Shown: positions 43,087 through 44,997 of the stretch, in pieces
Layout of the letters: the number at the start of each line of letters is the position of its first letter
Numbering within the stretch: the stretch's first letter is position 1
IMG/VR virus record: IMGVR_UViG_3300020470_002235
Span: 1-55,029 of that record
DNA length: 55,029 nt
Reading direction: 5' to 3' (one strand)
From: a virus
Translations under genes and position numbers: made by a program
Notes under the pieces: model-generated
Database searches by the model: none
The model's input: only the letters and a program-made list of their open reading frames with translations
Told to the model about the DNA's origin: nothing

Positions 43087-43125
43087 ATTATAAGGTTTTT
43101 TTCAAATATTTCAAGGTGTTTTTTT
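43087..43125 (-). promoter_or_regulatory. A-tract/CACC promoter before structured RNA and hsp20
   Basis: Minus strand AAAAAAACACC, TTGAAA (43109-43114), 16 bases, TATAAT (43087-43092). It overlaps the last codons of the cyclase gene. Confidence 0.55.
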
Positions 43126-44997
43126 CAATTTTCTCAATTCTTTATCAATTAAAGGTGCATATATCTTAACTGGGATTGATTTTCCCTTAACATTTATCTC
43201 ATCAAGATACTGCCATTCACAATCAACCTGTTTCTTTGTGAACTCTGAAAATATGATTGGAGTGTCATAATCTCTTGTTTGGACTTCTAATCTAGCTGCA
43301 AGGTTAACTGCATCTCCAACAACTGAATAATCGAATCGTGCTTCACTTCCCATGTTTCCAACAATACATGGGCCTGTGTTAATTCCTGTACCGATAACCA
43401 CTGGTGGTAAATCTAATCCTTCGTCTTTGATTTCCTGATTCATTTTTTCTGTTAACAATTCTATTTCTATTGCAGAATCTAAAGCTCTTTGTGCGTGGTC
43501 GGGACAATCTAAAGGAGCACCCCACCATGCCATCAAACAGTCGCCCATATACTTGTCAATGGTTCCACCATTTTTGAGTACTATTTTTGACATACCGTCT
43601 AGGAATCTATTGATTAATAACACTAGACCTTCAGGGTCGTCATTCTTCATATAAGCTTCTGATATTGGAGTGAACCCAACTATATCTGCAAAAAGGTATG
43701 AAAGTTCCCTTCTATCTCCACCTAATTTCAATAATTCAGGGTGTTTTTGGAGTTCTTCAATCATGTCAGGCGATAAATATTTTTGGAACTGCTTCTTTAT
43801 TTGTTGCTTTTCTTTGAAGGTAACATAGTATTTGTTAAAAGATGCATGACCGAAAACAATCAAGGAGGCCATAGATGAAAAGAAGGTATCGAAGAGAACG
43901 AGACTTGAAGACCAAATATAGAAACTCCCACCCACCTGAAGTCCTACGAGTATTAGAGAAAATGTCCCCGAAAGAGCTGTGGGAAGCTTATAAACCATTA
44001 CCAACACTGTTAAGAGAACTATCAGAAGAAGAACAGATTCTACAAATTCAAGAAAGTAGGATTGCTTTATTTGAGTTCCTGTCAAAGCGGTCTGTATCAG
44101 ATTCGCTTGAACTTCGTGAGGATACATTGTACCCATTGGGGTTGAAACTGGATTGTTCAATCCTTCAGCAGTTACCCCGAACACAAGAATAGAGTTTTCA
44201 GGTAATTCGTCCGTGAAGGAATAACGTTTGAATTTATTCCAGTAACTTATCATTAAATCACCTTGAGGTGTCGTGGAAATTGGTGGTTGTCTTCCGACTC
44301 TAACCCACTCAACACCAACCTCTTCAGTGACTTTCATTTGATAAGACTTTTCGTCATTAAAAGCACGTAACACTTCAACAGCAAGTGAGGGATATATTTG
44401 TCCGTTTGCTTGCATTAAAAGTGGTGCAGAACGTATAGTTCCATCGAAATTTGGTGTTCCTGATATACTAGGAGTTGCAGTAGTTACCCCTACACCATAG
44501 GTGTTTCCCTCTAGTATAGGAATGGGACTGAGGACACCTGGCGTCCCCCATACTGCGTTTTTAGCGTTTCCTGACCCCAAAGTACTAGTTCCGACAAATG
44601 GACTAGACCCTTTTTCGGTCTGAATCGTGGGTGCTGAGGCTAAAATACTCAATCTATTGACCAAAGCAGTCGCAAATTCCTCGTCTCCACCGAATCTATC
44701 GACCTCTGAGAACACTTGCGTGAACACATAAGTGTTAGACCAGTGTGATTCTAGTAGTTTATCTGCGTATATTTTGCGTGGAAATGGTAATTGACCGTAT
44801 TGTTCTACTGACTTTTCGTCAATATCGACTAAAACTATTTCGGGAAGTCCTGATTCGGAATCGTACTCTTGAACACTATGTGTACTATGTAAGTAATCAA
44901 ACCACGACCAAGATATGTTTTCTATGAAATATGGGTTCCAAATCTTAAGTGTAAAGAGTAACCCAATGGTTACTAATACTGTTTTCCAAGAGTACAT
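43111..44997 (-). CDS. CHASE2-domain class III adenylate/guanylate cyclase
   Basis: 628 residues. An N-terminal anchor (TVLVTIGLLFTL), a periplasmic CHASE2 sensor (about 40-300: LPEIVLVDIDEKSVEQYGQL, PFPRKIYADKL, GVGVTTATPSISGTPNFDGT), about three membrane helices (about 310-395), then a class III cyclase (about 425-620). The cyclase metal aspartates are in YLFADIVGFT and KYMGDCLMAWWGAP, and the transition-state N/R in VVGDAVNLAARLE. It would make cAMP or cGMP in response to an envelope signal. In bacteria such cyclases often accompany FecR proteins, as here. Rare in phages. Confidence 0.88.
   Translation of the reverse strand: MYSWKTVLVTIGLLFTLKIWNPYFIENISWSWFDYLHSTHSVQEYDSESGLPEIVLVDIDEKSVEQYGQLPFPRKIYADKLLESHWSNTYVFTQVFSEVDRFGGDEEFATALVNRLSILASAPTIQTEKGSSPFVGTSTLGSGNAKNAVWGTPGVLSPIPILEGNTYGVGVTTATPSISGTPNFDGTIRSAPLLMQANGQIYPSLAVEVLRAFNDEKSYQMKVTEEVGVEWVRVGRQPPISTTPQGDLMISYWNKFKRYSFTDELPENSILVFGVTAEGLNNPVSTPMGTMYPHEVQANLIQTALTGTQIKQSYFLEFVESVLLLIVLLTVLVMVYKLPTALSGTFSLILVGLQVGGSFYIWSSSLVLFDTFFSSMASLIVFGHASFNKYYVTFKEKQQIKKQFQKYLSPDMIEELQKHPELLKLGGDRRELSYLFADIVGFTPISEAYMKNDDPEGLVLLINRFLDGMSKIVLKNGGTIDKYMGDCLMAWWGAPLDCPDHAQRALDSAIEIELLTEKMNQEIKDEGLDLPPVVIGTGINTGPCIVGNMGSEARFDYSVVGDAVNLAARLEVQTRDYDTPIIFSEFTKKQVDCEWQYLDEINVKGKSIPVKIYAPLIDKELRKLKKTP

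What the first reader, a model, noticed from the sequence alone, without database searches (positions are those of the whole stretch)
43111..44997. Full-length CHASE2-class III nucleotide cyclase in a phage
All catalytic elements of a class III cyclase appear intact (two metal aspartates, N and R of the NxxxR motif) downstream of a periplasmic CHASE2 sensor and membrane helices. A phage able to raise cAMP or cGMP from an envelope signal would control host physiology directly, or feed an anti-defence or timing circuit. The linkage to FecR and curlin genes suggests the signal is the assembly or export state of the curli-like polymer.
Basis: partly seen in the sequence, partly recalled or inferred. 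Interest (0 to 1): 0.85.

Follow-up and report, generated by a model that had tools for sequence, protein, structure and literature searches.

The report
Phage adenylate cyclase in curli module
A marine T4-like phage carries an intact, selectively maintained membrane enzyme predicted to make cAMP in response to its own curli-export genes, a known phage gene set whose cAMP has no recognisable receptor in the phages searched or in most SAR11-family genomes searched.

Summary
The ORF at 43111-44997(-) is an intact 628-aa CHASE2 plus class III cyclase protein, with every catalytic residue present (D438, D486, K482, S558, N565, R569) and dN/dS far below 1. It is not a new kind of gene. It is annotated in pelagiphage HTVC008M, and Wittmers 2022 (PMC9599517) described it as the adenylate cyclase of a phage curli (type VIII secretion) module. 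Here it is the last gene of a fixed order (CsgF-CsgG-curlin-FecR-curlin-cyclase), found in every IMG/VR relative with enough flank.

New here:
(1) Its catalytic domain has been swapped between phages at about codon 420-430, independently of the sensor.
(2) FecR plus CHASE2 is a general two-gene sensor pair. It occurs in bacteria beside cyclases and, in SAR11 chromosomes, with a SpoIIE phosphatase output.
(3) None of 20 phage records and only 5 of 99 SAR11-family genomes have a cNMP-binding domain, so the assumed cAMP-CRP route has no visible receiver.

Most likely mechanism: FecR relays the state of the CsgGF pore or curlin export to CHASE2, which sets cAMP output. The relay and the effector are inferred. 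The host of this contig is not established.

The parts
43111..44997 (-). Membrane-bound CHASE2 class III nucleotide cyclase (628 aa), predicted adenylate cyclase
   Evidence: ORF; Pfam CHASE2 and Guanylate_cyc; AlphaFold2 pLDDT 88; Foldseek to CyaB/CyaC/Cya2; dN/dS 0.06-0.26
44005..44952 (-). CHASE2 periplasmic sensor (residues 16-331), including the N-terminal membrane segment
   Evidence: Pfam PF05226 E 6.6e-30, genome search, AF2 topology
43708..43800 (-). Hinge (about codons 400-430) where the catalytic domain has been exchanged by recombination among phages
   Evidence: sliding identity break for window vs L010/L011/L013 and vs L071; AU tests
43147..43725 (-). Cyclase catalytic domain (residues about 425-617): D438, K482, D486, S558, N565, R569
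   Evidence: A1/A4 conservation; structure matches
44997..45152 (-). 51-aa single-TM protein whose stop overlaps the cyclase ATG (TAATG); conserved directly upstream in the close clade
   Evidence: sequence; tblastn in L002-L005, L010, L011, L013, L016
45149..45421 (-). 90-aa small TM protein overlapping the 51-aa ORF (ATGA)
45468..46154 (-). Curlin-repeat protein 2
   Evidence: Pfam Curlin_rpt 2.2e-6; NCBIfam CsgA 2.2e-7, well below cut-off
46296..47429 (-). FecR-domain periplasmic protein (377 aa)
   Evidence: Pfam FecR 1.7e-9, 34/34 relatives; AF2 FecR domain resembles PupR signalling domain 6ovk
47386..48150 (-). Curlin-like repeat protein 1
   Evidence: no Pfam hit; NCBIfam CsgB/CsgA E 0.0034/0.0046, weak; position and phage relatives
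48107..49039 (-). CsgG outer-membrane pore
   Evidence: Pfam CsgG 1.7e-48
49041..49538 (-). CsgF
   Evidence: Pfam CsgF 3e-12
49507..49782 (-). 91-aa single-TM coiled-coil protein (phrog_18771); always upstream of CsgF
   Evidence: no Pfam family
49786..50118 (-). 110-aa paralogue of the 91-aa protein (phrog_18771)

Best explanation
This is a genuine, selectively maintained class III adenylate cyclase. It is the cytoplasmic output of a FecR-CHASE2 sensory pair that belongs to the curli/type VIII secretion module of pelagiphage-type T4-like phages. The likely relay is: CsgGF pore and curlin polymer at the outer membrane, then the FecR-domain protein in the periplasm, then CHASE2, the membrane helices and the signalling helix, and so dimeric cyclase activity and cAMP. 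Shown by sequence: intact enzyme, topology, fixed linkage, purifying selection, and independent swapping of catalytic domains while the active site is kept. Inferred: that FecR is the direct partner of CHASE2, that curli export state is the signal, and that ATP is the substrate (K482/S558). Unknown: the receiver of cAMP, since neither the 20 phage records searched nor 94 of 99 SAR11-family genomes have a cNMP-binding domain.
For: Domains and active site. dN/dS 0.06-0.26 where not badly saturated. Linkage in every phage locus with enough flank: FecR 47/47, CsgG 45/45, CsgF 43/43, TM91 38/38, same order 38/38; starting from CsgG, 61/61 have FecR and 26/26 the cyclase, for close relatives. FecR next to CHASE2 also outside phages: within 2 kb of the CHASE2-cyclase in 16 of 80 bacterial loci (Pfam) and beside all 9 SAR11 CHASE2 genes examined with flank. 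Literature: FecR with CHASE2-cyclase in Campylobacterota (PMC9239204), FecR with CHASE2-kinase in a Burkholderia biofilm operon (PMC5192318), outer-membrane barrel NsrA upstream of CHASE2 cyclases in S. meliloti (PMC13001267). Catalytic-domain swaps with the active site conserved imply that cyclase activity itself is selected.
Against: No assay and no demonstrated FecR-CHASE2 contact. In S. meliloti the FecR gene next to cyaD1 was not needed for the plant-signal response (PMC5498481). CHASE2 co-divergence with the module (rho 0.81 over 32 modules) is not clearly above that of the catalytic domain in a closer subset of 24. No cAMP receptor found. Melnitz lacks the N565 equivalent.
Confidence: 0.6

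Rival explanations
1. The cyclase acts by raising cAMP so that a host CRP-family regulator reprograms host physiology, as the first reader proposed and as in enterobacterial csgD control.
For: CRP-cAMP controls curli in E. coli (cited in PMC9599517); some bacterial CHASE2-cyclase loci have cNMP-binding genes next door (7 hits among neighbours; L101 has a cNMP_binding-HlyD fusion).
Against: cNMP_binding in only 5/99 SAR11-family genomes and none of 20 phage records. The host of this contig is not proven to be SAR11, and OM43, the Melnitz host, was not checked.
Confidence: 0.15
2. It is a lysis or timing device: the CsgGF pore with its cyclase acts as a regulated pinholin-like system (extension of Buchholz 2022).
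For: PMC9004378 proposes a lysis role for phage CsgGF; the 91-aa protein has a weak hit to a holin PHROG (E 1.3e-4 over 20 residues).
Against: Curlin-repeat and FecR genes are conserved with the pore, which pore-only models do not need; a candidate muralytic gene lies elsewhere (37914-38420, by sequence only); no evidence ties cAMP to lysis.
Confidence: 0.12
3. The protein is a relic or a mainly structural sensor, retained as a passenger of the curli module, with little or no cyclase activity.
For: No receptor found; Melnitz has N565 replaced by S and a very divergent catalytic domain.
Against: All catalytic residues kept in 36 of 37 phage sequences, including both exchangeable catalytic types; dN/dS far below 1 in the catalytic domain.
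Confidence: 0.08
4. Anti-defence: the cyclic nucleotide interferes with host nucleotide-signalling immunity.
For: None beyond the chemistry.
Against: Fixed linkage to export genes, periplasmic sensor, bacterial relatives in non-defence contexts.
Confidence: 0.03

Closest known systems
Pelagiphage type VIII secretion (curli) module with FecR and adenylate cyclase (Wittmers et al. 2022, PMC9599517); HTVC008M gp014-gp019
   Same: Same genes in the same order; cyclase homologue 40% identical over 97%; found in T4-like and podo-type pelagiphages
   Different: This phage is a separate lineage (DNA polymerase about 47% to cyanophages). It has extra small TM ORFs before the cyclase, and its small proteins upstream of CsgF show no histidine-kinase family match although the paper calls that position HK
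Methylophilales phage Melnitz module (PMC9004378)
   Same: CsgF-CsgG-curlin-FecR-curlin-cyclase order; CHASE2 groups with HTVC008M
   Different: Its catalytic domain is very divergent, with D at position 558 and S at position 565
Bacterial FecR + CHASE2-cyclase clusters (Campylobacterota, PMC9239204; S. meliloti CyaD1/SMc02177, PMC5498481)
   Same: FecR gene beside a CHASE2 cyclase
   Different: No CsgG/CsgF/curlin next to the 80 bacterial cyclases examined; bacterial proteins mostly 725-850 aa, against 628 here
SAR11 chromosomal FecR + CHASE2-SpoIIE phosphatase
   Same: FecR next to a CHASE2 sensor about 30% identical to the phage one
   Different: Output is a SpoIIE/PP2C-type phosphatase, not a cyclase

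Membership tests
Class III nucleotide cyclase (adenylate type) | Two metal-binding aspartates and the transition-state N and R | tested here: met
   D438, D486, N565, R569
Class III nucleotide cyclase (adenylate type) | Substrate residues of the adenylate type (Lys and Asp/Thr/Ser) | tested here: met
   K482 in 75/75; S558, S/T in relatives; interpretation of K/S as ATP-selective is from knowledge of the family
Class III nucleotide cyclase (adenylate type) | Cyclase fold | tested here: met
   Foldseek to 3r5g CyaB TMt 0.88, 1wc5 CyaC 0.85, 2w01 Cya2 0.86
Class III nucleotide cyclase (adenylate type) | Enzyme activity, ATP versus GTP | not testable with these tools
   needs protein
CHASE2 receptor | CHASE2 domain between an N-terminal TM and three C-terminal TMs | tested here: met
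   Pfam 105 bits; helices 4-39, 314-337, 340-365, 372-404 in the model
Pelagiphage T8SS module | CsgF, CsgG, curlin, FecR, (curlin), adenylate cyclase in this order | tested here: met
   curlin 1 only weakly recognised by profile
Pelagiphage T8SS module | Histidine kinase before CsgF (as named in PMC9599517) | tested here: not met
   the 91-aa gene before CsgF has no Pfam family and neither it nor the 110-aa paralogue has a kinase match in PHROGs or NCBIfam; the 110-aa protein was not scanned with Pfam
FecR-CHASE2 sensor pair | FecR-domain gene adjacent to the CHASE2 gene | tested here: met
   same operon, one curlin and two small ORFs between; directly adjacent in podo-type contig L183/L186
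FecR-CHASE2 sensor pair | Physical FecR-CHASE2 interaction | not testable with these tools
   only single-chain folding was available
CRP-cAMP regulatory circuit | cNMP-binding receptor in phage or host | tested here: not met
   0/20 phage records, 5/99 SAR11-family genomes; the true host of this contig is unknown

The most novel reading that the evidence does not exclude
The phages install a complete second-messenger circuit of their own in a host that has neither a class III cyclase nor a CRP-type receptor, so the cAMP must be read by an unrecognised phage or host protein; and the circuit is built by attaching interchangeable cyclase domains to a FecR-CHASE2 sensor that the SAR11 host itself uses with a phosphatase output.
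Probability: 0.25. Interest if true: 0.8.

Novelty: new member of a known kind. Interest (0 to 1): 0.5.

Why it matters
Curli genes in pelagiphages have had competing explanations (sibling capture, uptake, lysis) with no test. A conserved, active-looking sensor cyclase in the same operon argues that the phage monitors its own export system, and gives an assayable read-out (cAMP) in a laboratory strain. The near absence of a cAMP receptor in SAR11-family genomes makes 'what reads the signal' a sharp, answerable question. The FecR-CHASE2 pairing across cyclase, kinase and phosphatase outputs suggests a general, little-studied envelope signalling unit.

Tried and rejected
Phage-encoded CRP-like effector: none in 20 records. 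Bacterial origin as a ready-made curli+FecR+cyclase operon: no CsgG/CsgF near 80 bacterial CHASE2 cyclases, no CsgF in 20 of those genomes, and no FecR or cyclase near five alphaproteobacterial csgF loci. Specific CHASE2-FecR co-evolution beyond the rest of the module: partial correlation 0.18, no stronger than with CsgG, and the CHASE2-versus-catalytic contrast is not significant in a 24-module subset. Riboswitch or known RNA in the module: only two tRNAs. Late-promoter scan: T4-type TATAAATA sites are no commoner than chance. Foldseek hits of the FecR model beyond the FecR domain were meaningless.

Full report
WHAT IS THERE. The window is a 55,029-base linear virus record, 36% GC, coding almost wholly on the minus strand, with T4-type replication and nucleotide genes recognised by eye from the translations (DNA polymerase, UvsX, helicase, clamp and clamp loader, ribonucleotide reductase; the polymerase is confirmed by similarity). 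The ORF at 43111-44997(-) is intact, 628 aa. It scores 105 bits to CHASE2 and 61.8 bits to Guanylate_cyc, both far above Pfam's cut-offs.

THE ENZYME. In an alignment of the window protein with 36 other phage and 38 bacterial sequences, D438, K482, D486 and R569 are invariant, N565 is kept in all but Melnitz, and S558 is S or T in all but Melnitz. From knowledge of the family, D438/D486 bind metal, N565/R569 stabilise the transition state, and K482 with S558 (the position seven before N565) contact the adenine, so ATP is the expected substrate. Foldseek places the catalytic domain on solved class III cyclases, CyaB (TM 0.88 by target), CyaC (0.85) and Cya2 (0.86); Cya2 carries E where this protein has K482 (alignment). 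The AlphaFold2 model (mean pLDDT 88) shows helices 4-20 and 23-39, a periplasmic alpha/beta CHASE2 domain, membrane helices 314-337, 340-365 and 372 onward running into a signalling helix to 404, and the cyclase from about 425 to 617. Nei-Gojobori dN/dS against the window is 0.10-0.19 in CHASE2 for relatives whose synonymous sites are not badly saturated, and 0.06-0.26 in the catalytic domain, so both parts are under purifying selection.

THE MODULE. Transcribed in order: two paralogous small TM proteins (110 and 91 aa), CsgF, CsgG, a curlin-like protein, a FecR-domain protein, a second curlin-repeat protein, two small TM ORFs, and the cyclase. The 90-aa, 51-aa and cyclase ORFs overlap by ATGA and TAATG, which suggests translational coupling (sequence). 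In IMG/VR, 100 relatives of the cyclase were found and 80 kept. Wherever the flank is long enough the module is complete: FecR 47/47, CsgG 45/45, CsgF 43/43, the small TM protein 38/38, same order 38/38. Started instead from CsgG, 61/61 have FecR and 26/26 have the cyclase, though those 80 loci are close relatives. HTVC008M and Melnitz have the same order.

A MOSAIC GENE. Window and L010/L011/L013 are mostly 80-98% alike in DNA up to about codon 420 and then about 50-78% alike; window and L071 are the reverse, 31-51% up to about codon 400 and then 69-83%. The tree of one part is rejected by the other: AU p = 8e-23 for keeping window+L003+L011 together in the catalytic tree, and p = 1e-5 for keeping the 15-member catalytic clade together in the CHASE2 tree. 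The catalytic domain has therefore been exchanged between phages at the hinge, while the active site stayed intact in 36 of 37. Across 32 modules CHASE2 distances follow CsgG, CsgF and FecR (rho 0.81) and catalytic distances do so less (0.41-0.45; 0.32 with CHASE2); in 24 closer modules the same contrast is weaker (about 0.5 against 0.25-0.35) and its bootstrap interval includes zero. So the swap is firm, and 'the sensor travels with the module' is suggestive only.

FECR-CHASE2 AS A GENERAL PAIR. Among 80 bacterial CHASE2-cyclase loci, a FecR gene lies within 2 kb in 16 by the phage FecR profile, and Pfam finds FecR among the neighbours; other neighbours are type I secretion parts (ABC, HlyD, OEP), cNMP-binding proteins and FHA proteins. 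In L101 the upstream gene fuses a cNMP-binding domain to HlyD. Literature has FecR beside CHASE2 cyclases in Campylobacterota (PMC9239204), beside CyaD1 in S. meliloti (PMC5498481) and beside a CHASE2 kinase in a Burkholderia biofilm operon (PMC5192318). In 37 of 297 SAR11-family genomes the search with the phage protein found a chromosomal CHASE2 protein of about 630-730 aa; two were scanned and are CHASE2-SpoIIE phosphatases, and all nine loci examined with enough flank have FecR directly upstream (seven) or within two genes (two). No curli genes accompany the bacterial cyclases, and the five alphaproteobacterial csgF loci checked have no FecR or cyclase. The phage module thus joins two bacterial units, which agrees with PMC9599517 that FecR and cyclase are not part of canonical curli operons; the addition here is that FecR and CHASE2 were already partners.

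THE MISSING RECEIVER. PF00027 found no cNMP-binding domain in 20 phage records, including complete HTVC008M and Melnitz, and in 5 of 99 SAR11-family genomes, though it rings in 10-11 of 14 control genomes. PF00211 found three matches in the same 99; two are on contigs that carry the phage module itself (L183/L186 in G425 and L184/L187 in G461), and the third is below the family cut-off. The SAR11 family was reached through a genome with an exact match to the SAR11-441R 16S probe, recalled from memory. These contigs in SAR11 bins support SAR11 as a host of module-bearing phages, in line with PMC9599517. The host of this particular window is not established: its DNA polymerase is about 47% identical to cyanophages.

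MECHANISM. Most likely, FecR, whose domain resembles the periplasmic signalling domain of PupR (6ovk, Foldseek E 2.7e-4; model pLDDT only 67), reports the state of the CsgGF pore or of curlin subunits to CHASE2. The nearest tested precedent is S. meliloti, where CHASE2 cyclases respond to a protein signal through the outer-membrane barrel NsrA (PMC13001267) and CyaD1 without CHASE2 makes cAMP constitutively (PMC5498481), so CHASE2 probably restrains the cyclase until signalled. Against this, the FecR neighbour of CyaD1 was not needed for signal perception there. What the cAMP does is open.

VERDICT. Observation confirmed. Interpretation partly supported. A new member of a known phage module; the receptor gap and the output-domain swapping are the points worth a specialist's time.

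Noticed in passing
window 42745-43072 (-): Between the cyclase stop and hsp20 there is a TATAAATA followed by about 316 nt that folds at -90 kcal/mol (z -3.64), conserved in L002, L003, L005 and L011 with an apparently covarying 5' hairpin, and no Rfam match. Possible structured leader or small RNA.
   Followed up: partly
window 49507-50118 (-): Two paralogous single-TM coiled-coil proteins (phrog_18771) always precede CsgF; PMC9599517 calls this position a histidine kinase, but the 91-aa gene has no kinase match in Pfam, PHROGs or NCBIfam and the 110-aa one none in PHROGs or NCBIfam. Function unknown; possibly part of the export apparatus.
   Followed up: partly
L191, L198, L201-L205: SAR11 chromosomes carry FecR + CHASE2-SpoIIE phosphatase genes, in L201 with TPR and STAS-like genes nearby (by eye), a host envelope-signalling system related to the phage sensor.
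   Followed up: partly
L101:6213-7925: Gene fusing a cNMP-binding domain to an HlyD membrane-fusion protein next to a CHASE2 cyclase in a small marine alphaproteobacterium: suggests cAMP-gated type I secretion.
   Followed up: no
L083:11983-14034: Melnitz cyclase has a very divergent catalytic domain with N565 replaced by S and D at position 558; possibly a different or impaired activity.
   Followed up: partly
window 46296-47429 (-): The FecR protein ends in evenly spaced strands (310-375) and a curlin-like tail (SINITITQTN), so its C-terminus may resemble or cap the curlin polymer.
   Followed up: no
window 1547-2878 and 38663-39331 (-): Two proteins share an apparent spermidine-synthase-like methyltransferase region (VLGLGGGVIPSWIHKNT / VLGTGGGVIPSYLHRNT), seen by eye only.
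   Followed up: no
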